Of a stretch of 64,000 bases of DNA, positions 11,248 to 42,456 are shown one piece after another. The position numbers and the translations under genes are program-made. The notes beneath the pieces were generated by a model, which saw only the letters and a program-made list of their open reading frames with translations, did no database searches and had not been told where the DNA came from. Numbering within the stretch: position 1 is the first letter of the stretch; each line of letters begins with the position of its first letter. Source of the DNA: Linanthus parryae (taxonomy: Eukaryota; Streptophyta; Magnoliopsida; Ericales; Polemoniaceae); contig JALGPY010000006.1 of assembly GCA_023055425.1 (NCBI GenBank), positions 74,184,127-74,248,126 of the forward strand, written 5' to 3'.

Positions 11248-12472
11248 GTCCATACTTTGTTGGTATACATGGATTCCATCTCGGATCTCATGGCTTCAAG
11301 CCATTTCTGAGAGTTCGTCCCTTTTATGGCCTCTCCATAGGTAGTAGGCTCATCATCTATCAGCAGCAAGTCACAAGACTTAGTCACGAGAAGTCCATAC
11401 CTCTCTGGCTCCTGGCGCACTCTACTCGACCTACAAAGTTCTTGTGTTACTTGAACAGGCTGCTCCACAACTAGTTCCTGTTCATGTTCCATAGTAGGGT
11501 CAATGCTTTGTGGTTCTTGAACTTCTTCAAGCTCTACAGTCCTCCCATTGGTTATTTAGAGACAAATTCTCTATCTAGAAACACGCCGGACCAAGCAACA
11601 AACACTTTGTTCTCAGTTGGATTGTAGAAATAATATCCCTTAGTTTCCTTAGGGTATCCCACAAACTTGCATTTATCCGACTTAGGCCCTAGCTTATCTG
11701 ACTGTAAACGTTTTACATATACATTGCAGCCCCAAATCTTCATGAATAACACTGTGGGACAATTCTCACTCCACATATCATGTGGTGTCTTCATGACTGA
11801 CTTAGATGGAACACGGTTAAGGGTGAAAGATGCACCCAATAGAGCGTATACCCAAAATGATAATGGAAGATCAGTTTGACACATCATAGATCGAACCATA
11901 TCCAATAGAGTTCGATTCCTCCTCTCGGACACGCCATTCCACTTTGGCGTTCTGGGTGGAGTGAGTTGGGATATTATCCCAAACTCTCTAAGATAGTCAT
12001 CAAACTCTTGGATCAAGTATTCACCTCCACGATCCGATCGTAGCGCCTTAATACTATTTTAAAGCTACTTCTCTACTTTACTCTTGAATTTCTTTAACTT
12101 TTCAAAGGATTCGGATTTGGCCTTCATAAGGTATACAAATCCATATCTACTGAAATCACCAGTAAACGTGATGAAGTAGACGTAACCATCCATGGTAGGC
12201 ATGGCAAATGGCCCACATACATCGGTATGTACTAGCGCCAATTGCTCACTATTCCTCTAACCTTTCTTATTGAAAGGGTACTTTGTAATTTTTTCCCAAT
12301 AAACAAGCCTCACATGTTTCATACGATTCAAAATCAAATGAGTCTAGAAATCCATCCTTATGGAGTCTAGATACACGTTTCTCCTTCACACGACCTAAAC
12401 GACAGTGCCATAGATAAGCAGGATTTGAATCATTCATTTCAATCATCTCGGTATTAATGTTATAGATATGAT
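11248..12472 (-). pseudogene. Copia integrase and start of reverse transcriptase (element B)
   Basis: This is the minus-strand CopA pol. The integrase part at 11552-12016 includes LTPPRTPKWNGVSERRNRTL with the catalytic Glu, the SFWVYALLGASFTLNRVPSK helix region and FVGYPKETKGYYFYNP. Downstream (lower coordinates) lies the acidic linker and the first RT residues (SQKWLEAMRSEMESMYTNKVWT), ending at 11248. Above 12016 the segment matching integrase catalytic Asp regions is frameshifted. The gene is split twice, by C at 12472/20807 and by the inversion, its RT continuing at 42457 on the plus strand. Confidence 0.88.
12468..12472. repeat. Target-site duplication of C, left copy (ATGAT)
   Basis: ATGAT precedes C and is repeated directly after it at 20802-20806. 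Removing C and one copy gives a continuous B pol sequence that aligns with the uninterrupted G at about 48640-48670, confirming the insertion. Confidence 0.95.
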
Positions 12473-13818
12473 CGTTGGAATAGGTGTCCTAGAGACAATC
12501 TATATTTAGTATGAACGATTTGTTGGCTAGAACATTCATTTATTAATTATTGTGATATTTAATATAATGAAGTCTTTAGATACAATGTGTTGTTTATCTT
12601 AAATATCCCTTTTCCATTATATTGGTTAATAGGACAATCAGATATAGACTACTATGTGTGTAGATTGATATGGAGATATCAAGTCTAACACATGGGTATG
12701 CATTAGGAGTAATGACATACTGGATTGACCCACGACGAGAAGGATACATTAGATTATGTTAAAGTCACAATCGCTTCTCGTAGTGCTAATAATATTGTAA
12801 TCCTTAGACTTGAAGTCACTAGATACTCTAGTTGTTGAATATCATGCTTTGATGTTATCCAACGTTGCGCCTTAACCGGAAAACTATAAAGATAGCTACC
12901 TGGCCTGATAGGAAGCAAGCTTAGAGATTGTCGTGACGTAGAGAGGATTTGTCCCTCCCACATAATGGGAGCAAATATCCATGGCCACTCGAGGGATGGT
13001 GCTTGTTGAATGTCTTGCCAGACCTAGATAAATCAATCTGGAGATATTGATTTTATCTGCTTGCATAAGCATATTCCCAGGATCGAGAAACTATGGATTG
13101 GATATACGAGTGTGAATATTATGTCTCGTGTCTAATCCGGATATAGATACAAAGGAATAATACAATATGTGATATTGGATGTGTTCCTAGACACCGCTCC
13201 ATGTTAGTAATAAGTTACTACCAACTAAGTAGAAACCTATGGGGTCACACATCGGATGGACTAAATTGGATATAGGTATTAACTAGTTTGACTAATTAAT
13301 AAAAAGATCATAACGCAACAACAAGCAAACTTGGCAGGATTAATTTGCAAGTGGGCTAATCAATGTGAGGGTATGAATAGTATTGGGGACTTTATGTAGT
13401 TAATAAAGAGGTATGACTATATAAAGGAACTCTAGCTTGTTATTTCTCAAGACAAGTGATTATTTGAGAGAACATAACAAAGCAAGAGAGAAAGAGACAA
13501 GGAAGGAGCCGAAGCTCCCACCCGTCCCCCTACCCGACGTCGTCGGCCTCCCCATAGGCGCGGCCTCCTCCTCGCTTTGCGTGATCTTCTTCCTCCTTCT
13601 ATCGTTACTAGAAATTCACGGAGAGAATGAATCCAATCAAGATCCAATGTGTGGATATTCGTAGAGACGAAGACACTATTCTTCGTGTGATCTACCAAAC
13701 CAAGGTACACATCTTCTATGCTCTTATCATTTTATGATAGATCTTCCTGTGATCATTGGTGGGCTTTTAGTAGGAAAATTTTGTTATTCCGCTGCGTTAC
13801 CTACGTCAAAACCCAATA
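12473..13818 (+). repeat. 5' LTR of C
   Basis: This is 1346 bp. It starts CGTTGGAATAGG (TG mutated to CG) and ends AAACCCAATA (CA to TA). A TATA box, TATATAAAG, lies at 13418-13426, with a purine-rich tract and the conserved GC-rich segment (13510-13570) downstream, so transcription probably starts near 13450. Relative to the 3' LTR it lacks about 57 bases near 13172, which accounts for nearly all of the length difference. Confidence 0.95.
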
Positions 13819-13819
13819 G

Positions 13820-13837
13820 TGGTATCAGAGCCACAGG
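13820..13837 (+). promoter_or_regulatory. Primer-binding site, C
   Basis: TGGTATCAGAGCCACAGG lies one base after the 5' LTR. The first twelve bases match the tRNA-Met primer site exactly. Confidence 0.93.
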
Positions 13838-15452
13838 TCGTAGTGCATAACATTATTTTACGTTTTACGATTTCATTTTATACACTGTTTCATTCATATT
13901 ACGCGAAATTGAAATTAATTGGCATAGTAGATGCAAATTGAATTTGATTAATGACAAACAAGATCTAATTTAAACACTCGATGAGTAAATTGGTGAGTTT
14001 GATCACATAGGATGTGAATAATTGGGTTCTTGAAAAATTAGGGTTCTTGGGCACATAATTGGGAAAAAGAGTTTTTCCACTTATGGAAACAACTTTATGG
14101 AAACAACCAAACTTGGGCAACAAGGAAGGAAGGGGAAGGAAGCTAGGGACGAAACCCTAGCTGCCTCCTCCTCTTCCTGCGCGCCAAGCTAGGTTGCGGG
14201 TTACCTAGGAGCTGCCAGCCTAGGGCTAGCCCGGGGTGGAATGCGCCGGTCCATAGGGGTTCGGCCTAGGTCTAGGTTGGACCCCTTGGACCGTTGTGAC
14301 CATAATTATCAAATTTCAACTGAAATTAAACAAGCGTGTTAAAAATTGGTTTTAAGTGTATTATGTGATTTGTTGCATGGTGGATGGATATGGCCTAAGT
14401 TTTGGATGTTTGTGTTTGTTTGTGGTTTTGTTTACGACCTGCGAGCTGATCAAATTAATGTAATAGTTAGTTAATTTTACGGCCTGGGAGCTGTTCATCT
14501 TCTCAACATGTGAGGTTTTATTTATTTATTTATTTATTTTAGATGTTAGGCTAGAATAAGAAATATTTAGTTGATTGCCAAGAGCATGGAGAAGAAGATC
14601 GGAGAACCAAAGAAGCCACAAAGACGATGAAGGTCCCATCATAGATGCGCGCAGCTATGGTGGAGCACTTGGAGATGAGCTTGACACTTTAGGGCATATA
14701 GATATTACCATTGGCTTGGTAATATCTTAGTCTAGGGGCCATATCCATGCCACGTTAATTTTCTTTTGTGGATGTTTATTAGTTATGTCTTGTTATTTAT
14801 TTTTGTGTGTATGGCGATACGAGCAAAACTTTTACAAGATAATTATAAACAAGTTTGATCTTTTATTCTAGATTGCCAAATCCAAATAAGTGGATCATGT
14901 TGATGGGATCAACCAAACAAGTAATGGCTATTAATTCCCTCAATGGAAATATTGCGTTTTGCCTTCCCTTGCCTAAACACCCTTCATGATCAAGGTCTAT
15001 TAAATTCGGGCTTGCCAAAGCAAGGCGTTTTAATTTACCTTGATGTGTTGAGAACGACACAAGCAAGTGTGTGATTGTTGAAGCAAGAGGTTGGACGCAA
15101 CGGGGTAAAATCAATTGGATTGATGAGCCTAGATGCATGATAAGTGTTATCTAAAGGATAAAGAATAATGAATTATTCGCCAAATTGGACCAAGAGTTGC
15201 ATGGGATGCAATTGGAATGGTTCCTACCTAAATAACCAATTCTTGGGTGACTTGCCAAAGCAAGCTCCAGAAGAAGTGAAATATGGATCTTGGACTCACT
15301 AGAAAATATGTATGATATTTTCCGCATTAATGGAAAGGGATATTAATCTGAGAAAAATAGTAGGAGCTAATTTAATAATCTAGCCTTTGTTGAATATAAT
15401 TAAATCGTTCAAAATACTAACATTGCATATTTCTCGTTTTGTAGAATTTCAA
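13838..15452 (+). other. Untranslated leader of C
   Basis: This 1.6-kb stretch has no credible reading frame. It holds GC-rich inverted sequence around 14190-14290 with repeated CCTAGG and GGCCTAGG-like words, a (TTTA)n run near 14519-14537, and a block at 15000-15260 that recurs next to gag in A, B, D and G. The same architecture in all copies suggests the leader is functional in the family. Nothing in it resembles a host gene. Confidence 0.75.
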
Positions 15453-16252
15453 AAGGCAAACATTCACGCATCGACTTCATCCCTGCGATGTGTCCTTGAG
15501 AAGGAAAAGCTGTCCGGAACAAATTTTCTTGACTGGTACAGAAACTTAAGGATCGTCCTTAAGCAAGAAAAGAAACTGTACGTCTTAGACAATCCTATTC
15601 CAGAACCACCCCATGATGAGTCTGTTCTAGCTGAGGTAAGAGAACGTCAGAAACATATAGATGATTCCAATGATGTGACTTGCCTCATGCTTTTAACCAT
15701 GACCTCTGAGCTTCAGAAACAACATGAGAAAATTGAAGCCTATGATATGATCATACACTTGAAAGAGTTGTTTCAGGAACAGGCAAGGCATGAGCGGTAA
15801 GAAGTGTCCAAAGCACTGTTCAAGAGCAGTCTCGTAGAAGGGAACCCATTTGGGCCTCATGTGCTCCGAATAATCAGGTACATTGAGAACCTCACGAGGC
15901 TGGAGTTCCAACTCGGCCAAGAGTTGGCTACTGATCTTGTCTTGCAATCGTTTCCCGACAGTTATAACCAGTTCATCATGAACTATAACATGAACGAGAT
16001 CAGTAACACTCTGCCAGACTTGCTGAACATGCTAAAGACAGCCGAACAGAGCATCAAAAAAGGCAAGGGCAAGGCCATAATGATGGTGAATAAGTGTAAG
16101 GGCAAGGGAGTTGCCTCTAATTCTAAAGGAAAGCGCAAGAATTTTGCAAAGTCCAAGGAAGCCCTAAAGCCTAGTGGGGGCGTGGCTAAAGGTGATTGTC
16201 ACTACCGTAGCCATCCAGGTCACTGGAGGAGAAATTTCCCAAGTATCTGAAG
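15453..16252 (+). pseudogene. Copia gag (element C), start codon lost
   Basis: Alignment with copies G and D puts the start at 15453, where AAG replaces ATG. The frame encodes the N-terminal block NFLDWYRNLRIVLKQEKKLY, the helical capsid-like core with EEL...HLKELFQEQARHER, and NYNMNEI...TLPDLLNMLKTAEQSI. It ends with a Lys/Gly-rich tail and a zinc knuckle at about 16197-16240 in which the second Cys is Arg and the last is Phe. A TAA at about 15799 interrupts it, and a one-base loss near 16230 throws the frame before protease. Confidence 0.9.
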
Positions 16253-17765
16253 GATAAGAAGCTTGGAATAGTGATTCCACCACCACCCGGTATTTTTGTT
16301 ATAGACGTCAATCTATCAATTTCTTCATCTTGGGTATTGGATATTGGATTTTGTTCTCACATTTGTCGAAATGTGCAGGATTTGAAAAGAAGTAGAAGGT
16401 TGGCTAAAGGGGAGATAGATCTGCGCGTCAGGAATGGAGCAAAAGTTGCTGCATTATCTATAGGCGTTTATGAACTATCTTTTCCTTATGGACTTATTTT
16501 AGAGTTAGAAAATTGCTATTATGTGCATGCTATGAGCAGAAATATTATTTCTGTTTCTTGTTTGGACGGGAAGGGTTTTTCTATTTCAATAAAGGACAAG
16601 TGTTGCTCCATTTATTTTGATAGTATGCACTATTGTAGTGCGCATTTGTCTAACAGATTGTATATCCTTGATCTAAATAATTCCATCTATAACATAAATA
16701 CTAAAAGAATTAGAACTAATTATTTAAATCCTACATATCTATGGCACTGTCGTTTAGGCAATATAAACAAGAAACGCATATCTAGAGTCCATAAGGATGG
16801 ATTTCTAGACTCATTTGATTTGGAATCATATGAGACATGCGAGTAATGTTTATTAGGAAAAATGACAAAGTCCCCTTTCAATAAAAGAGGTTAGAGGACT
16901 ATTGAGTTACTAGCACTCATACATACCGATGTATGTGGGCCATTTCCCACGCCTGCCAGCGGTGGTTACACCTACTTCGTTACGTTTACTGATGATTTCA
17001 GTAGATATGGATTTGTGTACCTTATGAAGGATAAATATGAATCCTTTGAATTGTTCAAGGAATTCAAGAATGAAGTAGAGAAGCAACTTGATAATAGTAC
17101 TAAGGCTTTGCGATCGGATCATGAAGGAGAATACTTGAGCCGAGAGTTTGACGAATATCTTAGAGAGTGTGGGATAGTATCCCAACTCACTCCACCAGAA
17201 CGCCACAATGGAATGGTGTGTCCGAGAGGAGGAATCGCACACTATTAGATATGGTGCGATCTATGATGTGTCAAACGGATATTCCAATATCATTTTGGGG
17301 ACATGCTCTATTGACTGCACCTTTTACCATTAACCGTGTTCCATCCAAATCAGTCATGAAGACACCATATGAGATATGGACTGGGAAGCGTCCCATAGTG
17401 TCGTTTATGAATAGTTGGGGCTGAAATGTCTATGTAAAGTGTTTACAAACACACAAGCTCGGGCCTGAAGCGGATAAGTATAAGTTTGTGGGATATCCTA
17501 AGGAAACGGAAGGATATTATTTTTACAACCCAGCCGAGAACAAAGTGTTTGTAGCTCAAAACGACGTGTTTCTAGAAAGAGAGCTAGTCTCTAAAGAAGT
17601 AAGTGGGAGGAATGTAGAACTTGAAGAAATTCAAGAACCACAAACCTCTGAACCGATGATGGAACATGAACTGGAACCGCAAGGTGTTGTTGAAGAACCT
17701 GTTCAGGTAACACAGGAACTCCGTAGGTCAGGAAGGGTACGTCATGAGCCAGAGAGTACGGACTT
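16253..17765 (+). pseudogene. Copia protease and integrase (element C)
   Basis: The protease active site reads WVLDIGFCSHIC; the family form is DTG, so the catalytic motif is mutated. The GAG-preINT segment has LWHCRLGNINKKRISRVHKDG, then a TAA at 16844. The integrase core follows: Asp in HTDVCGPF, Asp in RSDHEGEY and Glu in NGVSERRN. Two overlapping frames around 17170-17245 mark a frameshift, and a TGA lies near 17422. The C-terminal GYPKETEGYYFYNP domain and an acidic linker follow. Integrase inserts the cDNA into the chromosome and protease cuts the polyprotein. Confidence 0.9.
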
Positions 17766-19352
17766 CTCGGGACTGAGCCCGATGACATACCACTCATGGA
17801 TGATGAGCCTTCAACCTATGGGGAGGACATGAAAGGCCCAGACGCCAAGAAGTGGCTAGAACCCATGAGATTCGAAATGGATTCCATGTATACCAACCAA
17901 GTATGGAATTTGGTGGAACCACCTGAAGGGGCTCGGCCCATAGGGTGTAAGTGGGTCTTCAAGAAGAAGACTGACATGGATGGAAAGTTAGTTGCCTACA
18001 AGGGGCGATTGGTGGCTAAAGGTTATAGACAGATTCATGGTATTGACTATGATGAGAGATGTTCACTAGTCGCGATGACTAAATCCATTCAAATCCTACT
18101 TGCTATTGCAGCGTACTATGACTACGAGATTTGGCAAATGGATGTCAAAACAACATTCCTTTATGGGAACCTCCTCGAGGACGTGTACATGACACAACCG
18201 GAGGGTTTTTAGGGCCATGGAATGCCAATAAATTTTGTAAGCTGCAACGACCCATTTATGGATTAAAGCAAGCTTCTAGGACTTGGAATCGACGTTTTTA
18301 TGATGCGGTCAAAGAGTTTGGATTCATCAAGAACGAAGTTGAGCCCTGTGTTTAAAAGAAGGTTAGTGGGAGATCTGTAGTGTTTCTGGTCTTGTACGTG
18401 GATGACATACTACTCATTGGAAATGCCATTCCTACTTTGCAACCTGTTAAAGATTGGCTAGGAAAGTGTTTCGCAATGAAGGAATTAGGAGACGCAACTT
18501 ATATACTTGGTATCAAGATATATTGGGATAGATCTAGGAAGCTTCTCGGCCTAAGCCAAACTACATATATAGACAAGGTGTTGAAGAGGTTCAACATGCA
18601 AGATTCCAAGAAGGTATTCTTGCCCATGTCGCATGGAGTCACTCTCTCTAGGACTGACTTTCCTTCCAATGAGGTTGAGAAGGACCGCATGAGTAGGATA
18701 CCCGATGCTTCGGCCATATAATCCATCATGTACGCCATGTTGTGTACTAGACCAAATGTATCATACGCGTTGATTATGGTAAGCAGATATCAGTCCAATC
18801 CAGGAGAGAGTCACTGGATTGCTGTCGAGAACATCCTAAAGTACTTGAGAAGAACTAAGGATGCGTTCTTGAGATTTGGAGGTAAGGAAGAGCTAAGTGT
18901 AATTGGTTACACTGATGCAAGCTTCCAAAACGAAAAAGATGAATACATATCGCAGTCGGGATACGTGTTTTGCCTGAACGGAGGAGTTGTGAGCTGGAAG
19001 AGTTCCAAGAAAGGGACAGTTGCCGATTCTACAACTGAAGTTGAGTACATTGCTGCTGCTGAAGCAGCAAAAGAGACAATTTGGATAAATAAGTTTATAA
19101 CTGAGCTCGGTGTGGTCCCTAGCATCGTGGATCCCATGGAGTTGTATTGTGACAACTCTGGAGCGATCGCACAAGCGAAGGAACCAAGAGCACACCAGAA
19201 ATCAAAGCATGTACTTACGATATTCCATCTTATTCGTGATATGATCGATAGAGGAGATGTGAAGATGTGCAAGATTCCAACGGACGACAATCTTTCAAAT
19301 CCGTCACAAAACCACTTGCGAAGCGAAAGCATGAAGGGAACACTAGATCTAT
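17766..19352 (+). pseudogene. Copia reverse transcriptase and RNase H (element C)
   Basis: RT starts around the MDDEPSTYGE linker, then GCKWVFKKKTDMDGK, the catalytic Asp block WQMDVKTTFLYGNL, and the YVDD box intact at 18395-18406. The RNase H domain runs through YTDASFQ, SWKSSKKGTVADSTTEVEYIAA and ELYCDNSGAIAQA to ADxLSNP near the end. Stops at about 18211, 18355 and 18721 and a frameshift near 17800 break it. It ends at 19352, 45 bases before the 3' LTR. Confidence 0.92.
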
Positions 19353-19383
19353 AGGCATACGAGATGTACAAGATTGGCTCTAC

Positions 19384-19397
19384 TACAAGTGGGAGAC
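19384..19397 (+). promoter_or_regulatory. Polypurine tract, C
   Basis: TACAAGTGGGAGAC lies immediately before the 3' LTR. The same tract, AAGTGGGAGA(C/G), precedes the 3' LTRs of B (43824-43834) and D (55900-55910). It primes plus-strand DNA synthesis. Confidence 0.85.
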
Positions 19398-20801
19398 TGT
19401 TGCAATAGGTGACCTAGAGGCAATCTATATTTAGTATGAACGATGTTTTGGCTAGAACATTCATTTATTAATTATTGTGATATTTAGTATAATGAAGTCC
19501 TTAGATACAATGTGTTGTTTATCTTAAATATCCCTAGTCCTTTATATTTGTTAATAGGACGACCAAATATAGCCTAGTATGTGTGTATATTGATATGGAT
19601 ATATCAAGTCTAACACATGGGTATGCATTAGGATTAATGGCATACTGGATTGACCCACAACGAGAAGGATACATTAGATTATGTCAAAGTCACAATCGCT
19701 TCTCGTAGTGCTAATAATATTGTAATCCTTAGACTTGAAGTCACTAGATACTCTAGTTTTGGAATATCATGCTTTGACGTTATCCAACATTGTGCCTTAA
19801 TCGGGAAACTATAAAGATAGCTATCGGGCATGATAGGAAGCAAGTTTAGAGATCCTAGTGACGTAGAGAGGATTTGTCCCTCCCACATAATGGGAGCAAA
19901 TATCCATGGCTAGTCGAGGGATGGTGCTTATTGAATGTCGGGCCAGACTTAGATAAATCAATACGGAGATATTGATGTTATCTGCTTGCATAAGCATACT
20001 CCCAGGATCGAGAAACTATGGATTGGATATACGACTGTGATTATTATGTCTTGTGTCCAATCCGGATATGGAGACAAAGGGATAATACAATATGTGATTT
20101 TGGGCACAAGGTTTGTCGCGATCACTAACTTATTTCTATTAGTTGGGTGGCATGGATGTGTTGCTAGACACCGCTCCATGTTAGTAATAAGTTACTACCA
20201 ACTAAGTAGAAACCTATGGGGTCACACACCAAATGGATTAAATTGGATATAGGTATTAATTAGTTGGACTAATTAATAAAAGGATCATAACGCAACCACA
20301 AGCAAACTTAGTAGGACTAATTTGCAAGTGGGCTAATCCATGTAAGGACATGATTAGTGTTGGGGAATTTATGTACTTAATAAAGAGTTATGACTATATA
20401 AAGGAACTCTAGCTTGTTATTTCTCAAGACAAGTCATTATTTGAGAGAACATAACAAAGAAAGAGATAGGGAGAGAGAGACAAGGAAGGAGTCGAAGCTC
20501 CCACCCGTCCCCCTACCCGACGCCGTCAGCCTCCCCATAGGCGCGACCTCCTCCTCGGTTTGTGTGATCTTCTTCCTCCTTCTTCCGTTGCAAGCACTAC
20601 ACGGCGAGAAGGAATCCAATCAAGATCCAAGGTGTGAATATTCATAGAGACGAAGACACTATTCTTCGTGTGATCTCCCAAACCAAGGTACACATCTTCT
20701 ATGCTCTTATCATGTTATGATAGCTCTTCCTGTGATCCTTGGTGAGCTTTGAGTAGGAAAATTTTGTTATTCCGCTACGTTACCTACGTCAAAACCCAAC
20801 A
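19398..20801 (+). repeat. 3' LTR of C
   Basis: This is 1404 bp, starting TGTTGCAATAGG and ending AAAACCCAACA, with intact TG...CA ends. The TATA box is at 20395-20403. The segment around 20104-20160 (including TTAGTTGGGTGGCATGG) is absent from the 5' LTR of C but present in the LTRs of B, D and G, so the 5' copy suffered a deletion. Confidence 0.95.
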
Positions 20802-22050
20802 ATGATTTGTTAGATCAAGTATATGTAATCCATTAAATAATTGCCCACTACAATAGTGAATACTATCAAAATAAATGGAACAACAATTGTTATTTATTGA
20901 AATAGTAAAGCCATCCTTTTCCAAACAAAGAATAGAAATAATGTTTCTGCTCATAGAAGACACAAAATAACAATTATTTAATTCTAAAACTAATCCTGAG
21001 GGCAGAGACAACTCGTACACGCCCACGGCCAATGCAGCAACCTTTGCTTTATTCCCAACGCACATGTATATCTCCCCTTTAGCCAATCTTCTAATTCTCT
21101 TTAGATCCTGCACATTTCGAAAAATGTGAGATCCACATCCATTATCCAATACCCATGATGAAGATATAGTTAAGTTGACATCCATAACAAAAATACCTGG
21201 TGGTGGTGGAATCACTATTCCAAGCCTCTTATCCTCCAGATCTTTTGGACAGTTCCTCCTCCAGTGTCCAGGCTAACTGTAGTACTGACACTCACCTTTA
21301 GTCACACATTTGGCAATGCCACCAACAGGCTTAAGGGCAGATTCCTTTGGTTTGGCAACTGCTTTGCATTTTTCCCTTGGAGGTAGAGGAAAACCTTATG
21401 CCCTTTCCTTTTTGCACCATCATTATGGATTTTCCCTTACCCTTGTGGATGCTTTGTTCAGCTGTCCTCAACATAATGAGTAAATCTGACAGAGGTTTCA
21501 CGATCTCATTCATGTTATAGTTCATGATGAATTGTCCATAATTCTCAAGCAACGATTGCAATATGATATCGGTGGCCAATTCTTGACCCAACGGAAACCC
21601 TAGGCGGCCGAGGCTCTCAAGATAGCCGATCATACGTAACACGAGCGGCCCCACCGGGTCTCCTTCTGACAGATGACATTTGAACAATGCCTTGGAAACT
21701 TCATACCTCTTAACCCTAGCCTGATCTTGGAATAGCTGCTTCAAGTGTGCGATCATATCGACTACGTTCATGTTCTCATGTTGCTTCTGAAGCTCAGAGG
21801 ACATGGTGCAAATCATTAGGCATGCCGCATCATTAGCGTTGTCAACACGCTTTTGATACGCCTTTAGGGCTGCAGGAGTGTAGTTCTCCGGACCTTCAGG
21901 AACTTGCTCCTATAGAGCGTACTGTTTCTTTTCCTGCTTGAGAGCGATTCTCATGTTTCTGTACCAGTCTAGAAAATTGGTTCCAGAGAGCTTGTCCTTC
22001 TAAAGGGCAGAGCGTAGGGAGTGTGATGAGATTAGTGAGTTGTTTGCCAT
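20802..22050 (-). pseudogene. Copia gag and protease (element B)
   Basis: The gag start is CAT at 22048-22050 (MANN...), followed by frameshifts. The open stretch 21816-21331 holds the capsid-like core (HLKQLFQDQARVKRYEVSKALF, YNMNEIVKPLSDLL). A zinc knuckle near 21260-21300 has lost its second Cys and gained a stop. The protease motif near 21150 reads WVLDNGCGSHIF, with Asn for the Thr of DTG. The GAG-preINT segment (LEKDGFTISINNNCC) is cut at 20802 by C. All three CopA protease motifs in the window differ from each other. Confidence 0.88.
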
Positions 22051-23672
22051 TGAAATTCTACAAAAAGGAAATACGCAAGTTTTAGTATTTGTGAACGATT
22101 TAACTATATTTAATAATGGCTAGATTATTAAATACATCTTACACTATTTTTCTACGGATTAATCACCCTGAAGATATTAATGCGAAATATATCATTATAA
22201 TTTCTAGTGGGCCAAGACCCATATTTCACTTCTTTTTTAGCTTGCTTTGGCCAGTCACCCAATAGTCAGTTATAGGTAGGAACAATTCCAATTGCATCCC
22301 AAGCAACTCTTGGTTCAATTGGGAAAATAACTCCTTATTTATCTATCCCATAGATAATCCCAATTAGTGCCTCTAGGTTTTTATCCTTATTAAAATTACA
22401 TAGTTACGTCCAACTCTTACTCCAACAATTGCACATTACATGTGCCATCGCACCACATAATGATGAATATATTCGCCTTGCTTTGGCACGCACGAACTTG
22501 ATTGATCGATTTTTTGATGAGTATTTAAGTAACGAAAAGGCAAAACGTAATATTTACTTTTGAGGGAATTTCTTTCAATTTAATTATTTTGTTGATCTAT
22601 ATAAACTGATCTACTTATTTGAGTTTGGCCAAAACTACAAATAAAAGATCCAGGTTGTTTAATTATCTTATTATCAAATTGCATGCATCGACCATACACC
22701 AACAACAATAATAAGACAATAAAGTAAACATCCACGAAACAAAAATTAACGTGATATGGATATGGCCTCCTAGACTAAGATATTTTTCAAGCCAATGAGA
22801 ATATCTATGAACCCTAAAATAGCAAGCGCATCTCCATGTGCCTCCATCTTTTGGTTCATCCTCCATAGCCTTGTGGAATGCTCCATGCTCCATGTTGTGG
22901 CTCCTTTAATTATTTTGGCTTCTTTTCTTCAATCTTGGCTATCTATTCTATTTAGTACTAGCTAGCAACTAAACTAAATATATAAATCTCACAAGTTGAG
23001 AAAAAAATATACCGGCTCGCAGGCCGTAAGCCCTAATTAATTATTACGTCAGATTGATCAACTCGAAAGCCGTAAACAAACCACAAAAATTAAACATTCA
23101 CAAAAAACCACATCTAAGGCCATATCCAATCACCATACGAATTGCACATAACAGTTTAAACCAATTTTTAACGCGCTTATTCAATTTTTAATTGATGTTA
23201 AGATTACTAGGGTCAAAACGGTTCAAGAGGCCCAACCAACTAGGTGGCCGAACCCCTTGGAGCCGCCTGGGCCGAGCCTTGGCCAGTCAGCCCAACCCGT
23301 GGGGTCGGCCGGACCGCCAAGGCCTTCGGCCTAGGTGGCTTGGGCGGCAAGGAAGGAGGGGCGGTCTCCCTAGGGGGCCAAACCTCTTTGAAGTTGTTTC
23401 CAAAACAACTTCTTCCTTGTTCCCCAAGTCCAAATCCTATCAAAATTGAAACTCCTTTTCAAGTTTGTTCCCAAACCCTAGATCTATGATAATAAGATTT
23501 CTCAAACTCACTAATTCATACATCTCATGTAAAATTAGATCTTTTTTGGTTGAATCACATTCAACATGCATCCAATATGCTTAATTTGTAGTTTTAACGC
23601 AATAATCAACAATTATAGGTGAAAAACAAGAAAAGCGTAACACATAAAATACGTTATGCCCTACGAACTGTA
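22051..23672 (-). other. Untranslated leader of B
   Basis: This 1.6-kb leader is homologous to those of A, C, D and G. The plus strand carries the GC-rich block near 23230-23390 (many GGCC and CGGCC words) close to the PBS and the AT-rich part near gag. The open frames across the GC-rich block lack homology to any domain I recognise and are not conserved between copies. Confidence 0.75.
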
Positions 23673-23684
23673 GCTCTGATACCA
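23673..23684 (-). promoter_or_regulatory. Primer-binding site, B
   Basis: GCTCTGATACCA on the plus strand is an exact complement of the tRNA-Met primer site. It lies one base from the LTR. Confidence 0.92.
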
Positions 23685-23685
23685 C

Positions 23686-25100: not shown

Positions 25101-25462
25101 TTAGATACTTCATACTTCTCATGCCTTGCATTCTCTTGGAATTGATGTCTCAGGCGTACAATCATATCGTACGCCTACATGTTCTCATGTTGCTTCAGAA
25201 GCTCAGAATTCATGGAACAAATCATGAGGCAAGTGACATCATTAGAATCATCCAAATGTTTCCTGATGCGCCATGATCGCGGCAAGCACAACATCTTCTC
25301 CTAATGGGGCTAGAATAGGATTGTCTATGACGTACGGTTTCTTTTCTTACTTGAGAAAGTTTCTCAATTTTCTGTACCAGCCAAGAAAATTTATTCAGAT
25401 AGCTTTTCCTTCTCGAGGACAGACCTTAGGGATGAAGTCGATGCTTGTCTATTGTTTGCCAT
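25101..25462 (-). pseudogene. Copia gag N-terminal fragment (element D)
   Basis: It starts at the CAT at 25460-25462 and runs, frameshifted, to 25101, where B inserted. Readable pieces match the LRSVLEKEKLS...WYRKLRNFLK and the EA YDMIV HLR region of gag. The rest of gag, protease and integrase are missing from the window: the other side of B resumes in the integrase-RT linker at 44969, so a deletion followed. Confidence 0.75.
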
Positions 25463-27264: not shown

Positions 27265-27276
27265 GCTCTGATATCA
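27265..27276 (-). promoter_or_regulatory. Primer-binding site, D
   Basis: The plus strand GCTCTGATATCA is one change from GCTCTGATACCA. It lies one base from the LTR end. Confidence 0.87.
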
Positions 27277-27277
27277 C

Positions 27278-29856: not shown

Positions 29857-29860
29857 CAGT

Positions 29861-30245
29861 TTGAGGGGAGTATTAGACAATCAAGATCCAGCCCAACTAT
29901 GAAGTCTAAGTAGTGGTCCAACTCAATACTAGCCTAAGACCAAGGTCCATCTCAGCTCTGGCCCAAGGACCAATCTGTAAGAAGACCAAAACTAATTGTT
30001 ACATACTGAAGCTCTGCTGACTAGGAGGACCGCTATGCAATAAAATGTCAACCGTTGGATCGTCGTTGACTAATCTAACAGCTCCTTCCTTAAGTGATTT
30101 TTTGTATTTATCACCATTGTAATTACCGTCTCCATTATCGAAGATTAACAGTTCATATTCTTCCTCGTATTCCTATGTTCTTTAATCTTCTCCTTCGTTC
30201 TATGTGATTGATGATTTATTTCGAAACCTTACATGGTTTCTTTCA
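29861..30245 (+). repeat. Polypurine tract and 3' LTR of E
   Basis: TTTGAGGGGAGTA at 29861-29873 is the purine tract. The LTR follows, starting TATTAGACAATC at 29872 (TG mutated to TA). It is short, about 360-375 bp, with its end at CTTACA (30233) or TTTCA (30245); I cannot decide between them without the 5' LTR, which lies outside the window. Confidence 0.65.
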
Positions 30246-30700
30246 GTTGGTATGGACTTATTTGGTAAATTTAGGTGTTGCTTTGGAAGCATGAGGTTGT
30301 TGGATCTAATTTAGTTGTCGCCTATGTGTTTGAATCTTATTTGCTTTGTACTTTGTAATTATATGAAACTATATGCCATGTAAGAGAATGGAGTATATCG
30401 AGTCCTACGGCTTTCTTGTTTTGTGATTTATAAGGTGTTTGGATTAGTTAGGACCGCACGAGGTGAGAACTTAGGAGAGGCTAAATGGTTTGTATTTAGT
30501 GGAGACCCACACATCCACTCCTAGATATGGATTCCTTTGATTGCTATTTTCTTTCATCACATGGAAGATAACTTGTTTGGCCCTTATATTTGATGAACTG
30601 AATTGTGATTACATTTTTCTGTAATAGGGGAATTACTTAATTGGTTTTAATGCGTCTATATTTCATTCAAGCTGTGTTTCTCTTATTTTGTCATTCTATT
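30246..30700. other. Non-coding stretch between E and GY0 gag
   Basis: This 450-bp stretch has no open frame with a recognisable domain. It lies just before a gypsy gag in the same orientation and may be the GY0 leader. No PBS or LTR was recognised. Confidence 0.4.
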
Positions 30701-32137
30701 ACATGGTAGAACAAATGAATGACGAATAGAAAATAGTGTAGGTTTGTCCAATAGACCATATTGTTGCTACACTAGTAGATACTGTCAAGAAAAAATGATC
30801 GCCGATGCAGCTGCCGCTAGAGCCGCTCAACTTGAGCAATTGGTCATAAACATGAGTGAAATGATCCAAAGTGGGGCGAACAACCACAATCGTGAACCCG
30901 ATTGAGCTAAGAAAATCTCGCATATAAAACCCGACTTCTACTATAGAAAGGAAGACCGTACTCTTTTAGAAGATTGGATTCGTGACTTTGAGAAAATCCT
31001 GGACACTGTAGGTTCTCCACCAAACCTAAGGGTAACATGGGCGGTGTACTACTTCAAAGGAGAGGTCGATAATTGGTGGTCAGCTAGTAAGGAAGCCTTC
31101 TTATCTCAAGAGAGCTTTATTTGGAATTCCCTTAAGCAAGCCTTAAGAGCCCGATTTTACCCTGAACATGTCAAGTCCCAGAAGTATGACGAGTTCATAG
31201 CCCTGAAGCAAAATAATGGGTCAGTGGCTGAGTACTACAGTAAGTTTATGGAGTTAGCCCGCTCTGCCGAGGACCTAGTCCCAATGAAGTTAGGAAGATT
31301 ACCCGATTCATTGATGGATTTAAATATAGCATTCAGAAAACCCTAGTTGCCATGACCTATACCACAAACCACGAGGCATATGGCAAGGCAGCAAATATGT
31401 GGAGGGTTCAGGAATTGCAAGATACCCAGTACGAAAAAAGGAAGACTGAAACCCAAGATATGTTCGAGACAACTATGTGGTAATCCAGAGTCAGGGAAAT
31501 AATAATAAGTTTAGGCAAACATTACCATGGGAAACTAGAGTTAGGACAAGGGAATCTTGAGAAATATAACCATAAGAATAGAGAACCCGAGCACCATTAC
31601 TAATGTAGGAAGTGCTACCAAGACCATCCAGGATTTCATTGTAATTTGGCAATCTTTTTTTGTTTTTGAGAAACAATGTGGCAATCTTAATCTGCAATGG
31701 TGTCGGATACGAGACCACCGAGCTTTTGAATGTAGAAGTGGAGGAGGAAATTACCAGAAACCTAACCATAACCAATACAGTCCCAGCAAGCCAGTATGGA
31801 AACAACTTCAGGACCAAGAACGAGAATGGCAACCAATACCATGGCAACGATCAGTAGGAGAACAACTATCGTATAAACTCCAACAACAATGTGCCCAATG
31901 GGAATGAAAACAAGAACGGAGGTCGGAATAGGAAAGAAACATGAAATGGGGTACCAATGCTCAAGGAGTTAATAATCAAAGGAACGGAGGACAAATCTTT
32001 GTTATGAATCAAGCACAAGCGAATGCCTCGACAAATGTGGTGAATGGTATATACCTCGTCCATAGTAATTATGACTTCATTTTATTTGATTTCGCACCTT
32101 CATTCCTTAAATTTGTCATATTTGACTATAAAAAATA
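30701..32137 (+). pseudogene. Ty3/gypsy gag and start of protease (GY0)
   Basis: The gag capsid domain is readable at 30950-31346: LLEDWIRDFEKIL, then YYFKGEVDNWW and RARFYPEHVKSQKYDEF, and EYYSKFMELAR. A zinc knuckle of the CX2CX3HX4C type (CRKCYQDHPGFHC) lies near 31598, followed by a broken second knuckle ending HRAFEC near 31720. A protease start at about 32037-32080 reads VNGIYLVHSNYDFILFDFAP; the DSGA active site has become DFAP. Stops and frameshifts are many. The knuckle pair suggests a chromovirus-like gag. RT and integrase are absent. Confidence 0.85.
31647..31688. repeat. 22-bp insertion flanked by a 10-bp duplication
   Basis: TGGCAATCTT occurs at 31647-31656 and again at 31679-31688. 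The 22 bases between are T-rich at the left, and on the minus strand read ...GAGAAAC-type complement followed by an A-rich tail (GTTTCTCAAAAACAAAA). This resembles a very short poly-A-ended retroposon with a target duplication, or a small duplication with filler. It splits the two gag zinc knuckles of GY0. Confidence 0.5.
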
Positions 32138-36439: not shown

Positions 36440-36494
36440 TTATATCCCCCTTAAACGAAGCTTCATCCCCGAAGAATAAGAAAACTTTTAAGTG
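36440..36494 (-). mobile_element. GY polypurine tract and 3' interior, plus S1 right duplication
   Basis: On the minus strand CTTCGGGGATGAAGC is followed by TTTAAGGGGGATATAA, directly before the GY LTR start. AAGTG at 36490-36494 is the right target duplication of S1 (CACTT in element sense). This short piece and 6015-7128 make the whole GY interior. Confidence 0.7.
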
Positions 36495-37785
36495 TGAAAG
36501 GGGGGAGTATGCAGATGAATATGTAGCACAAATACTCTAGAAGGGGGGGGGGGTTGAATAGAGTATTTCAACTTTTTGCAAAACTAGAGGAGAAAAAGAG
36601 TTTTACTTTTAGTGCAAAGGAGTTCAAGGCCTTGAACACAAATTCAAGCCTTTGGAATGAAATTCAACTTGCAAAAAAACAGACAAGTCTTTTTCAAGGC
36701 CTTGAAAAGAGTTTCAAGGACTTGAAAAGAGTTTCAAGCCCTTGAAAAACAGATAAGTTTGAATGTTGTAAGAACTATGAATATGAAAGAACTGTAAATG
36801 TAAGAGACAAATGATTTATAGAGTTCAGTCCACTTGGACCTACGTCTCTACCTCAGGGATCTTCTCCTTTCAGGATTTTCAACTCAATTCTTATTAATCA
36901 AAAGCTAAGCCCTAGATCTCAAGCACAGAGAATTGCTTTACTCTCTTACAGCTTGTGGTTCTCCCTAACATATCTAGTACCTGCCCTAGCTGACTGATTA
37001 ACTAAGAATTCTCTATTGTTCACTTTGAACAATCCTTGAGAATGATGTAGAAGTATTACAAAAATGATCTACCAATAAAGTACACTACAGAAGAACACTG
37101 GAATAGAAAACTGCAGTGAACTTCTGTGTGTTGGATTGTGCGGGTGATGAAATTCTTTGATGCTTGCCAATCCAGGACTTTATCTCTCTCTTTGACCGTT
37201 GAGTGTTGTTCTTGTTGCTTCAAAAATGAGCTCTATTTATACTTAAAAAAGCTCTGGAAATCTTCCTATATTTTCAGCAACAAATCTCCTATTTTGTAGG
37301 CAACAAACTTTGACTCTTTGACATCTTGTCCAACGGTTAGACGATCACAATCTTCAGAGATATTGTTGTGATCTTGCATTTAAACAAATTGAGAAGCTTT
37401 CATGGAGTTTTGATTGATAACATAATTATCTTCTCAAACTGTTTCCATTCCTGCACAAGTCAGATTTGGAAACTATCCCTGCAAACTAGGAAATAGATTT
37501 TCCTGCAAAAGTATAGTAAAACAGATGACTTCTTATGTTCAAACATGTCGAGTTAATTTGTATTTCATAATCAAATGATAATAAATCAAGCATAAGGGTG
37601 AGAGAGAATAAATCAGATTAGAAGAGTTCACAGAAAACTCCCTCTGAGAATAAGCATACAGGTTATTCAGTTTCAAGGCTATACTATTTTCAAGCCTTTG
37701 AGAACAGATTCAAGGCTTTGAAAGTTGATTCAATGCCTTGAAATAGTTTTTCTATTTCAAGCCTTGTGCAACCTATGACCTTACA
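36495..37785 (-). repeat. 3' LTR of S1
   Basis: This is 1291 bp. The plus strand begins TGAAAGGGGGGAG and ends ATGACCTTACA. TTCAAGGCCTTGAA motifs occur near 36625 and 36691, with variants near 36720-36745 and 37685-37765. An ACTCTAGAAGG tract followed by poly-G lies at 36534-36553. The 5' LTR is 58 bp shorter. Confidence 0.9.
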
Positions 37786-37799
37786 ATGACCCCCTTGAT
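37786..37799 (-). promoter_or_regulatory. Polypurine tract, S1
   Basis: The plus strand ATGACCCCCTTGAT reads ATCAAGGGGGTCAT on the minus strand, directly before the 3' LTR start TGTAAGG. Confidence 0.8.
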
Positions 37800-38055
37800 G
37801 AAATACAAAACCAAGACTTGTTTGATTATTAGTCTCTGCAAAAAAATACTGATTAGTATAAAGTTCAAATAGCATGATAGTTCCAAAAGATCCAACTTAT
37901 TCAATTCACCAACATAAAATAAAAGCTCGGCAGATAATTCCTTAGAATAAAACCTAAAAACCCTAGAATTTCTCCACCTTTTTGACTTTCATCAAAAAGT
38001 TAAAGAAAATGTTGGATCAAGTGTCTGGAAAATTTTGAAAATAAAACTTAAAATC

Positions 38056-39820
38056 TTAAAAGAGAGAATGGGGAAGAAAGAGTAGGCAGGATAAAAGGGT
38101 TGGTTCTTCATCTCCATCTTCATCTCCCTTTTCTTCCCCACTGTCATCATCAGTCTTATCATGTTCTTCCAGTTCTTCTTCATTCTCATCAGCAGTAGTT
38201 AATTCTTCATCCTCGTCCTTGGTAGCAACCTTTGGAGATTTCTTCTTTTTCTTCAAAGTAAGTAGCAGATCATCTGAGTCAGGACTGTTTACTTCATCTC
38301 CTTCCTGAGCAGCTTGTTTAACCACTTGTTTTCCCTTATCTTTGACTGGAGCAGCCTCTTCCTGGTTGGAATGTTCACTTGGCAAATTCTTCTCAGAACC
38401 ATCTTTCTTTGTACCTTCTTCATCCTCAGGAACATAAAACACAGTCATGCTCCTGAAGATGTCATCATATACTTAACTTGTCCCATATCAGTCTCAAGAC
38501 CATAAACAGTTTCTTTGATCTCTTCCAAATCCAACTCAAAACCATCAAGTCTCTGATTGTCTGTAGGCTGAGAAGTCTGACTTGAAGGGGGAGTCAAGGT
38601 CTTGGGCTTAAGAAATTTCTTTGCACCCAGTTCTTCTTCAGTCAAATCTGAGTACAACTTCCAAGTCTTTTATTTAGTTTTTACCAATCCAATTTTCTCA
38701 AAGGCTTTCTCATTAAGCATTCCAATGCCAGAAGTGACTGATTCCTCTCCACCAGTTGGAATCTCAAAGTGTTCAAAGAACAAAGTGAGCATATTTGCAT
38801 AGGGCAGAGTATGCATCCTTTTATTGGTATGGCTAAAGAGCATATCTTCAATAACTAACTTTGGAAGATCAATCTCATAACCTTGCATGATCAGATACAT
38901 GATTTGCAGCATTCTCTCAGTTACCAACTCTTTAGAGTGCTCTCTGGGAAAGATACACCTTCCAAAATAGTGTGAAGTACTTTGGCTTCAACATTTAACA
39001 CAAAGTGTGTTAATTATTTGACTGAGGTGGGAGTGTTTGGTAGGTAGAACTCTTCTCTGGCTAATTTCAGTACTTCTGTCTTAGGTGGGTAATTGCTTGT
39101 GTCATACCTCTTGGGACAGCCTAGTAAATTGACAAACTCAGAGTGATCCAATTCTATATCAATTCCAGCAACTCTAGATTGAATTACCAAGTGTGCTGAT
39201 CTCCTAACTAGTTTCAAGTTCAGATAGAAGATTTTGGTGAGTCTTGGGTAGGCTAACTCTTTAGGGTTCAGCATAAACCACAGAGAACTCTTCTTTAACA
39301 TAGAGATGCACTTAAGATTCATGTGTTCCACCATATGCATGTTGATCATAATACATAAAGAAATGGATCTGGAAGCAAAACCATTGAACCACTGATCTTT
39401 AGAAGTGTTTGAGATGAACCATGTTTCATCAGGGGTTGGGTTCTTTGAGTAGATCTGCAAGGCCTTCTCCATATGATCTTCTGGCTGTTCTTCTGTTACC
39501 TTTCCTTTCCCTTTTTCAGCTTGATTTCCCTTCTTCTTTTTCTTCACTTTCTTGGGGCTAGAGATATCTGTTTCAAGTTGCTTCTCTGCAGAAGCTCTCT
39601 CTTTCTTCTTCTTATTCTTTTCTAAAGAGGGAGTTGCAACCTTCTTGACTTTCTTTTTGGGTGGAGGAAGATCTGCAACTGCCTCTGCACTAGGGGTTCT
39701 AGAGCTAGAGTCTCCACTAATCTCTTTAACTTCATCAACTGATGCATTTCTTTTCTTCTCTGAACTAGGTTTTGACCCTCCACCCATCTTGATTCTGTCT
39801 GAGGCTCTCCTTGTGCTCAT
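38056..39820 (-). pseudogene. Extra reading frame of S1 after pol (env-like position)
   Basis: It starts at the ATG at 39820 (MSTRRASDRIKMGGG) and runs about 590 codons with frameshifts near 39010, 38660 and 38450. The first 130 residues are strongly basic with several KKKxK clusters (KKKVKK, KKVKKKKKG) that look like nuclear localisation signals. The middle, about residues 140-360, has RLTKIFYLNLKLVRRSAHL, GCPKRYD and REHSKELVTERMLQIMYLIM. It resembles the plant-transposon-type domain found in Athila and Sirevirus accessory frames. The C-terminus is acidic and lysine-rich. I see no signal peptide or membrane segment. Some Sireviruses carry an env-like frame in this position; its function is unknown. 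Confidence 0.75.
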
Positions 39821-40278
39821 TAGGGTTTGGGAGAAGAATAGAGAGAGAGAGGTAGCAATGATACTGAAAGATAGAGAAGATAAGAGGATAAATACTAAAA
39901 GTGTTTGAGTTTCAAAAGGAAACTAGAATATCTCTCTGATCTGAAAATATCTGTTATGATAAGGGAAAATTCAAATCTTTTAGGCCGTTGGAAATCAAAT
40001 ATTAAAATACTATATTTGGCTAAAAATTAATTTTGAAAAGGTGGGGGAAATATTGAGCAACTACAGAGATAGCACTCAATACTGAAAGATCCAAGATTGT
40101 TGACTAACTAGTTCAGCAGACTTATTTTCAAGGTTTTGAAAAGATTCTCAAGGTCTTGAAAAACTGCAACACTGAAACAAATAAGATCAAATTTTTGAAA
40201 GGATTTTCAAGGCTTTGAAAATCAGTTCATACCTTTGCAACCCACATAATAACTTACCTTCTCACCTGATGCTCCCAC
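39821..40278 (-). other. Spacer between RNase H and the extra frame (S1)
   Basis: This 460-bp stretch has no coding signature. It carries decayed copies of the family palindrome near 40128-40160 and 40205-40220. It may contain a splice acceptor or subgenomic promoter for the extra frame, but none can be pinned down. Confidence 0.5.
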
Positions 40279-41780
40279 CTAAACCAATGCATCTTTATTT
40301 AGCTTGCCTAATTCCAGTCTTAGAGCTGAAAATCTTTCATCTGGAAATGTTTTAGTGAAGATATCTGCAAGTTGCATGTTAGTAGAAACAAACTCAAGAA
40401 AAATATCACCTTTCTCAGCATGATCTCTGATGAAATGACGTCTAACATCAATATGCTTGGTTCTTGAATGTTGTACATGGTTCTTTGTGATAGATATTGC
40501 ACTAGTGTTGTTACATTTGATGGGAATACTTATGAAATAAAATCCAAGATCTCTCAACTGTTTAGCAATCCACAACACTTGTGAACAACATGCACCAGCA
40601 GATATATACTCAGCTTCAGCTGTTGATAGAGCAACTGAGTTCTGTTTCTTGGAGTGCCAACTGATCAGAAATGATCCAATAAATTAGCAAGTTCCAGAAT
40701 TGCTCTTTCTATCAACTTTCTAACCTGCAAAGTCTACATCTAAAAATCTATGCAAAGAGAAGTTAGAATGTCTTGGATACCAAAGCCCTAAGTCTTTCGT
40801 ACCATTGAGATATCTGAATATTCTCTTCATAGAAGTTAAGTGTGATTCCTTTGTATCAGCTTGAAATCTTGCACACATACATACACTGAACATGATATCT
40901 GGTCTGCTAGCAAAAAGGTATAGTAATGATCCAATCATACCTCTATATTCTTTCACATTGACACTCTTACCAGATTCATCTTTATCTAAAGACAGTGTAG
41001 ATATCATTGGAGTCTTGATCTCTTTGGATTGATACATGTTGTACTTGTTCAGCAAAAATCTAGTATACTTTCTTTGATGCAGAAAGATGCCCTTCTTCAA
41101 TTGATGTATTTAAAGTCCAAGGAAGAATTTCAACTCTCCCATCATGCTCATCTCAAATTCCTTGCTCATAAGACTTAAGAATTGTTTGCATAGAAGATCA
41201 TTAGTAGATCCAAACAGAATACCATCAATATAAATCTGATATACAAGTAGATCTTTCTCATGAGTCTTTATGAAAAGGGTCTTGTCTACCAATCCTCTTT
41301 TGAAATCATTTTCAAGCAGAAATTTTGACAATCTTTCATACCAAGCTCTTGGAGCTTGTTTCAAACCATAAAGAGCTTTGTTAACTTTATAAACGTAATC
41401 TGGAAACTTATCACTTTCAAAACCAGGAGGTTGTGCAACATAAACTTCTTCTTGCAAGTATCCATTCAGAAAAGCACATTTCAGATCCACTTAAAAAAGT
41501 TTCATGTTTTTGAAAGATGCAAATGCAAGCAGAATTCTAATTGCTTCTAGCCTGGAAACTGGAGAAAAAGTTTCCTCATAATCAATACCTTCTTCTTCAT
41601 TGTAACCTTAAGCAACTAACCTTGCTTTGTTTCTGATCACCTTGCCATTTTCATCCAACTTATTTCTGAACACCCATCTGGTACCAATGACAGACTGATT
41701 TGTAGGTTGAGGAACTAGGTTCCAAACCTTATTCCTTTCAAACTCATTGAGTTCACTTTGCATAGAAATGATCTAGTCTA
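40279..41780 (-). pseudogene. S1 reverse transcriptase and RNase H
   Basis: RT begins near 41780 with a frameshifted IGTRWVFRNK region. It has the catalytic MDLKCAFLNGYLQEEVYV block, YGLKQAPRAWYERLS and the active site as YIDG at 41221-41232, where the second Asp is lost. Then come SRPDIMFSVCMCARFQ and RYLNGTKDLGLWYP. RNase H follows with ACCSQVLWIAKQLRDLGF, KHIDVRRHFIRDHAEKG and QLADIFTKTF, ending LNKDALV at 40279. Stops near 41490, 41105 and 40690 interrupt it. Confidence 0.9.
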
Positions 41781-42456
41781 CTTCTTTTAGTGCTTCCTTC
41801 ACAGTTTTAGGTTATACAAGAGAGATAAAAGCATTAAAAGCACATAAGTTCTTCAACTGTGATCTAGTTTGTGTACTAGTGGTTGGATGTGAAATGATAT
41901 TATCAACTGGATGAGATAAGAGATATTTGAATCTATTTATTGGAGACTAAGGTTTAGGTTCTCAATATATCTTTTCTGGTTTTGAAGTAGTGGCTTTTTC
42001 ACTTTTATCCTTCTGATCATCTTTTTCAAGGCTTTGAGGCTTGTTTTCAAGGCCTTGAACACCATTTTCAAGGTCTTGAAAATGTCTTCTGTTTTCTTCT
42101 GAGCCTTTCTTGAACCCAAGAGAGTTCTCATTCTCTTCTTTTTATTCATGCTTGTTCATATTCAGATCTGCAAAACTTTTACTCAAAGGACCATCATAGC
42201 TTTCATCAAAGATAACATGAATATTTTCTTCAACCATCTTGGTTCTTTTATTATAAACCCTATAAGCTTTGCTAGAAAGGGAATAACCAAGAAATTTACC
42301 TTCATCACTTCTTGCATCAAACTTACCCAAGTTGTCCTTACCATTGTTGTGGACATAGCATGTGCAACCAAAGGGGCTGAAGTATGAGATGTTTGGCTTC
42401 CTCCCTTTGAAGAGTTCATAGGGGTTTTCTTCAAGATAGGCCTGATCAAGCACCTG
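41781..42456 (-). pseudogene. S1 integrase C-terminal part and linker
   Basis: From the breakpoint at 42456 downward it encodes the integrase C-terminal region (NPYELFKGRKPNISYFSPFG, then GKFLGYSLSSKAYRVYNKR and VEENIHVIFDESYDG), with a one-base shift near 42449-42440 relative to the longest frame. The linker at 41937-42149 holds FKTLK, FKALK and LKALK repeats, encoded by three TTCAAGGCCTTGAA variants near 42029-42080. It continues the 5' part that stops at 11247. Confidence 0.9.

What the first reader, a model, noticed from the sequence alone, without database searches (positions are those of the whole stretch)
11248..42456. A single 31.2-kb inversion explains five split retrotransposons
S1, B, D, E and GY each have their two halves in opposite orientation, one inside and one outside 11248-42456. 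Turning the segment back makes all five collinear at once. Two of the cuts fall within codons of recognisable domains (S1 integrase, B reverse transcriptase), so the endpoints can be set to a few bases. Independent truncations would not do this together.
Basis: seen in the sequence. Interest (0 to 1): 0.88.

Follow-up and report, generated by a model that had tools for sequence, protein, structure and literature searches.

The report
A small inversion in nested retrotransposons
About 31 thousand bases of a repeat-rich stretch of plant DNA appear to have been cut at both ends, turned round and rejoined, which split several jumping genes in two; the evidence is strong, but it is an ordinary kind of chromosome change.

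Summary
A single inversion of 11249-42456 is well supported (plant-like genome, 1.51 Gb). The B halves, mapped apart, meet within 4 nt in 6 of 7 genomic relatives fetched, with 8 nt between them in the seventh. The S1 halves meet to the codon in 79 of 82 homologous proteins that could be judged. D's reverse transcriptase stops outside at Pfam position 84 and resumes inside at 85; D's target-site duplication is split likewise, 5/5. E has one LTR inside and one outside. LTR distances of the split pairs are 0.086-0.131, wrong pairings of the same family 0.23-0.37.

One of the five supports fails as stated: the gypsy sequence at 60.3-64 kb is a separate element wholly outside, with its own gag. 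Only S1 and B are cut; D and E are split because they enclose B.

The junctions share no long homology; about 2 nt are lost and one has 2-3 nt of microhomology. That fits two breaks repaired by end joining. Assembly error is unlikely but not excluded without reads. Known kind of event; low interest.

The parts
11249..42456 (.). inverted segment, 31,208 bases
   Evidence: junction analysis of S1 and B
7129..11248 (+). S1 (Ty1/copia; SIRE-like by recall) outside half: 5' LTR 7129-8361, gag, Pol_BBD, gag_pre-integrs, integrase core
   Evidence: LTR pair with 37785-36495, K2P 0.090; Pfam
36495..42456 (-). S1 inside half: SH3-like domain, RT, a 302-aa ORF 39922-39014 followed by a weak Transposase_32 match at about 38966-38757, 3' LTR 37785-36495
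   Evidence: Pfam SH3_retrovirus from residue 18, RVT_2 1-243, Transposase_32 28.4 bits, below its cut-off of 45; ORF
11249..12472 (-). B (Ty1/copia) inside middle piece: integrase and SH3-like domain, ending at the left breakpoint
20804..25100 (-). B inside 5' piece: 5' LTR 25100-23686 and the 5' internal region
42457..44968 (+). B outside piece: RT, rest of the internal region, 3' LTR from 43835, truncated at 44968
12473..20801 (+). C (same family), both LTRs present, nested in B, wholly inside; TSD ATGAT/ATGAT
25101..28671 (-). E (same family) inside half: 5' LTR and 5' internal region, host of B
44969..57216 (+). E outside half, 3' part with 3' LTR 55912-57216; interrupted by A (45080-52948) and by a solo LTR (53472-54765); about 1.8 kb (C-relative 3338-5154) is in neither half
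28672..30245 (+). D (another Ty1/copia) inside half: RT from RVT_2 position 85, 3' LTR 29871-30245 (LTR ends set by eye)
57217..60324 (-). D outside half: Pol_BBD, gag_pre-integrs, integrase core, SH3-like domain, RT up to RVT_2 position 84; the 5' LTR remnant lies beyond the window at about 72302-72361
11248..11249 (.). breakpoint junction 1, S1-left joined to B-inside; 2-3 nt microhomology
42456..42457 (.). breakpoint junction 2, S1-right joined to B-outside; no microhomology
60325..64000 (-). GY2: 3' part of a separate Ty3/gypsy element wholly outside, nested in D; not part of the split set
30251..32040 (+). GY1: remnant of a Ty3/gypsy element (gag) flanking D inside; right end set by eye; mate not established
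   Evidence: (Retrotrans_gag, 31041-31274)

Best explanation
The stretch is an old nest of LTR retrotransposons: E inserted in the RT of D, B inserted in E, C inserted in B, and S1 inserted nearby. After S1 and B had both landed, the chromosome broke once in S1 (between integrase core and SH3-like domain) and once in B (start of RT), 31.2 kb apart, and the segment was rejoined the other way round by end joining. This cut S1 and B and put the outer parts of E and D on either side of the cut. Shown: collinearity, orientation and near base-precise reciprocal junctions. Inferred: that two double-strand breaks and end joining (not replication switching) did it, and that it exists in the plant and not only in the assembly.
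For: B halves meet at one base in C and A and within 4 nt in 6 of 7 genomic relatives fetched, 8 nt between them in the seventh. S1 halves meet in 79 of 82 judged homologues (110 aligned of 120). D's RT continues at Pfam position 84|85; D's TSD is split 5/5. LTR pairs across the breakpoints have K2P 0.086 (B), 0.090 (S1) and 0.131 (E) against 0.23-0.37 for seven wrong pairings in the same family. The B halves are similarly far from 6 of 7 relatives (inside 0.077-0.088, outside 0.088-0.113; L005 is 0.255 inside, 0.090 outside). Within 100 and 300 bases of the breaks the two regions share only chance matches (best E 0.28 and 0.39). Microhomology of 2-3 nt at one junction, none at the other, about 2 nt lost. 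No N in the window.
Against: No reads and no second accession were available, so a chimeric assembly cannot be excluded. TSDs of the split elements S1 and E are weaker than those of the unsplit ones: S1 4 of 5 at its LTR ends and E 4 of 5 in a T-rich context; the same scan, with shifts of up to 6, also gave 4 of 5 at B's truncated end, where no TSD is expected, so 4 of 5 is weak evidence. B's TSD cannot be read because its 3' LTR is cut short at 44968, and about 1.8 kb of E is missing there, so one further deletion must be assumed. The K2P of B and C (0.086 and 0.082, standard errors 0.009 and 0.008) and of E and A do not differ, so they agree with the nesting but do not prove it. GY does not support the claim. 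In one search, in the upstream reading frame, the S1 halves appeared 10 residues apart in 73 of 96 targets; a short deletion and frame change before the junction would explain it, and one search uses the frame that ends at the junction.
Confidence: 0.88

Rival explanations
1. Assembly artefact: a 31-kb piece was placed the wrong way round or two chimeric joins were made by the assembler.
For: The region is largely repeats, where assemblers err; no reads could be inspected.
Against: The joins are not in sequences homologous to each other, there are no N in the window, the two joins are reciprocal to about 2 nt, and the containing contig is 118 Mb.
Confidence: 0.08
2. Inversion by homologous recombination between two inverted copies of one family.
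For: Many inverted copies of the B/C/E/A family lie in the window.
Against: Such an event leaves hybrid copies at both junctions; here S1 is joined to B with 2-3 nt of shared sequence. The nearest inverted match with E below 1e-5 is 63 bases long and lies about 1.5 kb and 0.35 kb from the two breaks.
Confidence: 0.01
3. Independent truncations and insertions that only look collinear.
For: Truncated elements are common in this region (B 3' LTR, E gap, D 5' LTR, GY1).
Against: S1 and B would each have to be truncated twice at matching positions, at the same two points, with D and E agreeing in orientation; the B pair is the only one of 136 pairs that matches without an insertion between its ends.
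Confidence: 0.01
4. A more complex event at the same breaks, such as replication fork switching or a second hidden rearrangement.
For: Microhomology at one junction; further deletions in B/E and in D/GY2 nearby.
Against: Two reciprocal junctions with almost no loss need nothing more than two breaks; the deletions lie elsewhere and can be of another date.
Confidence: 0.02

Closest known systems
Plant inversions ascribed to double-strand break repair (maize centromere 10, PMC4806543; abstract and passages seen)
   Same: Rearrangements in retrotransposon-rich DNA, ascribed to break repair, in many cases with microhomology; times taken from retroelement insertions.
   Different: The inversions in the passages seen were inferred mainly from sorghum synteny and from a CentC cluster split by 2.6 Mb; here the order inside nested elements alone gives the original order, and the segment is 31 kb.
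Inversions in a crop pangenome (Brassica napus, PMC12599057; passages seen)
   Same: Copia and gypsy elements are the most abundant elements in inverted sequence and at breakpoints.
   Different: That paper suggests TE-mediated rearrangement for many inversions; here no homology joins the breakpoints.
SIRE/Maximus-like Ty1/copia retrotransposons (S1; name recalled)
   Same: Gag, integrase, RT order and a weak Transposase_32 match near the 3' end.
   Different: S1 is split by the inversion and changes frame before the junction; lineage membership was not tested.

Membership tests
Simple chromosomal inversion | Two reciprocal junctions; sequences cut at each break continue at the other junction in opposite orientation | tested here: met
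Simple chromosomal inversion | Features enclosing a break change orientation together | tested here: met
   D and E; GY as stated not met
Simple chromosomal inversion | Present in the plant (reads, PCR or other accessions) | not testable with these tools
   no reads or accessions held
End-joining repair | Junctions with no or a few nt of homology and small losses | tested here: met
Inversion by recombination of inverted repeats | Long inverted homology at both breakpoints | tested here: not met
Inversion by DNA-transposon ends (alternative transposition) | A transposon end at each junction | tested here: inconclusive
   each junction joins S1 pol to B pol directly, which leaves no room for a transposon; later loss not excluded
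Ty1/copia (S1, B, C, D, A) | Integrase upstream of RVT_2-type RT | tested here: met
   C and A within one piece; S1, B and D across the two halves; E was assigned only by DNA homology to C
Split Ty3/gypsy element GY | Both parts belong to one element | tested here: not met
   outside element has its own gag and LTR-end copy; whether the inside gag has a mate beyond 72.37 kb was not tested because the genome search did not complete

The most novel reading that the evidence does not exclude
The two breaks were not random: both fall in pol coding sequence of Ty1/copia elements in compact repeat DNA, and the event may be one of many in a stretch that breaks and rejoins often, so that nested elements could serve as a genome-wide record of small inversions without any second genome.
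Probability: 0.08. Interest if true: 0.4.

Novelty: new member of a known kind. Interest (0 to 1): 0.2.

Why it matters
It shows that nested insertions carry enough polarity to find, delimit and order in time a small inversion in repeat DNA from a single genome, where synteny with other species is of little help. It also warns that element-by-element annotation would list several falsely truncated elements here. The event itself is ordinary.

Tried and rejected
Recombination between inverted copies: rejected, no homology at the breaks. Independent truncation: rejected. GY as a fifth split element: rejected for the sequence in the window; a mate of the inside gag beyond 72.37 kb remains open: a comparison of 72362-75999 with window and flanks showed no copy of it inside the segment, only weak matches at E 0.17 or above. 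LTR-like 34143-35341 as a mate of 4809-5994: rejected on orientation and 74% identity. The two S1/solo-LTR controls were in the wrong orientation and are void; redone (20.6% and 19.1% difference against 8.5% for the S1 pair). Paper searches (two searches returned nothing) listed no title that I recognised as reconstructing an inversion from split nested elements alone; I saw listings, and passages of four papers, so this is not a claim that none exists.

Not carried out: genome-wide searches for closer mates of the S1 and B halves and for intact GY1 copies; the genome search answered only once.
Full report
Where it is. The window is C79:74184127-74248126 of a genome of 1,513,943,953 bases in 121 contigs. 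Named relatives of the S1 protein in the 120 listed (of 7938 found) are plant retrotransposon proteins, among them Centaurea and Tanacetum; the species is not known to me. The window holds only A, C, G and T.

The elements. Self-comparison and mapping on element C show one Ty1/copia family with at least five members here: A (45080-52948, minus), B, C (12473-20801, plus), E, and a piece A0 (1-3634, minus) that reaches the window's left end. Other elements are S1 (SIRE-like by recall), D (a second copia type) and gypsy pieces. Three unsplit insertions have 5/5 target-site duplications: C ATGAT/ATGAT, A CCTAC/CCTAC (one LTR end shifted by one base from my first guess), and a solo LTR at 53472-54765 GATCC/GATCC. 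They serve as positive controls.

B. The alignments of the inside piece (11249-12472, minus) and the outside piece (from 42457, plus) end at the same base of C and of A; the inside alignment runs 3 nt over the junction. One search scored 40 places and gave eight loci: the window itself and seven relatives. The two B pieces, mapped apart, meet within 4 nt in six; in L004 8 nt lie between. The 700 nt inside and outside the break differ from six relatives by 7.7-8.8% and 8.8-11.3%; from L005 by 25.5% and 9.0%. B's LTRs, one inside and one outside, have K2P 0.086. The 3' LTR is cut short at 44968, and about 1.8 kb of E (C-relative 3338-5154) is missing at the same place, so a deletion there must be assumed and B's TSD cannot be read.

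S1. LTRs 7129-8361 (outside) and 37785-36495 (inside) have K2P 0.090. The outside half carries gag, Pol_BBD, gag_pre-integrs and the integrase core; the inside half begins with the SH3-like domain followed by RT. With the 120 homologues listed, a first test in the upstream reading frame gave 10 residues between the halves in 73 of 96 targets that matched both; I take this as a short deletion and frame change before the junction. Using the last 13 codons before 11248, 110 of 120 homologues could be aligned, 28 had no fit of at least 5 of 13 residues, and 79 of the other 82 fitted best with the halves exactly adjacent; three fitted at offsets 4, 6 and -1. The TSD at the LTR ends is CACTC/CACTT, 4 of 5; a 5/5 pair exists only off the LTR ends.

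D and E. D's RT matches RVT_2 14-84 outside, ending at 57219, and 85-242 inside, from 28677, with E between. E's LTRs lie at 28671-27278 (inside) and 55912-57216 (outside), K2P 0.131. E's TSD reads TTGTT/TTTTT by my placing of the LTR ends. That is weak: the scan found other 4-of-5 pairs for E and also one at B's truncated end, where none is expected. The RT resuming at the next profile position is the stronger evidence. The flanks fetched show the start of D's 5' LTR outside the window (29870-29930 matches 72362-72302 at 88.5%), and D's TSD is GTTGG on both sides, inside at 30246-30250 and outside at 72362-72366 in the window frame; the LTR ends were placed by eye.

GY. The gypsy sequence at 60325-64000 is the 3' part of an element that runs to about 72296. 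It has its own gag, RT, RNase H and integrase and a Transposase_32 match of 44.9 bits against a cut-off of 45, and a second copy of its LTR end, 97.9% over 191 bases, at 72106-72296. It sits in D and lies wholly outside. It is therefore not the other half of the gypsy gag at 31041-31274. That gag flanks D's 3' end, so its own mate would lie beyond 72.37 kb; I could not test this because the genome search did not complete.

Chance. Among 17 ends of C-family fragments, chosen by me, there are 136 pairs; four agree within 10 nt in C coordinates. Three are the insertion sites of C, A and the solo LTR, all with 5/5 TSDs; the fourth is the B pair at the proposed breaks.

Junctions. Between the end of B-inside and the start of B-outside the relatives have two further nucleotides; in seven of nine compared (six loci and A) they are the two that also end S1-left, in C one of the two differs, and L004 is out of register. 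So junction 1 has 2-3 nt of microhomology, junction 2 has none, and about 2 nt were lost in all. Within 100 and 300 bases on either side the two break regions share only chance matches (best E 0.28 and 0.39); within 2 kb the best inverted match is 63 bases at 81% (E 2e-9), 1.5 kb and 0.35 kb from the breaks. This fits end joining, not recombination between inverted repeats.

Order of events. K2P of LTR pairs: E 0.131, A 0.130, S1 0.090, B 0.086, C 0.082, standard errors 0.008-0.011. This agrees with the nesting E > B > C and E > A, though B against C and E against A are within error. Seven wrong pairings in the same family gave 0.23-0.37, and S1 with the S2 LTR 0.48; two further controls were void and were redone. 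The inversion is younger than B and S1. With a rate of 1.3e-8 per site and year (recalled, from rice) B would be about 3.3 million years old, an upper bound for the inversion.

Assembly. The contig is 118 Mb long; there are no N in the window; the joins are reciprocal and not in shared repeats. That makes an artefact unlikely, not impossible.

Literature. In the abstract and passages of PMC4806543 the authors ascribe deletions, chimeric elements and inversions around a maize centromere to double-strand break repair, in many cases with microhomology. Passages of PMC12599057 report copia and gypsy elements as the most abundant in inversions and at their breakpoints in Brassica napus. Passages of PMC2773423 and PMC2686159 gave no closer case. 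The event is therefore of a known kind.

Noticed in passing
60325-64000, continuing to about 72296 in L009/L010: A Ty3/gypsy element with a borderline Transposase_32 match, nested in D; its LTR ends are 97.9% alike over 191 bases, which suggests that it is younger than the copia elements, and its 5' LTR is reduced to that stretch together with most of D's 5' LTR.
   Followed up: partly
44968-44969: Deletion scar: B's 3' LTR lacks about 280 bases and E about 1.8 kb at the same point.
   Followed up: partly
46300-46303: Element A lacks C-relative 6577-7120, the end of its internal region and the start of its 3' LTR.
   Followed up: no
36341-36442 and 3754-3855: A 100-base stretch repeated in inverted orientation (80%), one copy next to S1's 3' LTR and the other beside an S1-like gag at 3.8-4.8 kb.
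   Followed up: no
L010-L011, window frame 78942-82131 and 83528-86699: Direct repeat of 3.2 kb, 95% alike, starts 4.6 kb apart in the right flank; not identified.
   Followed up: no
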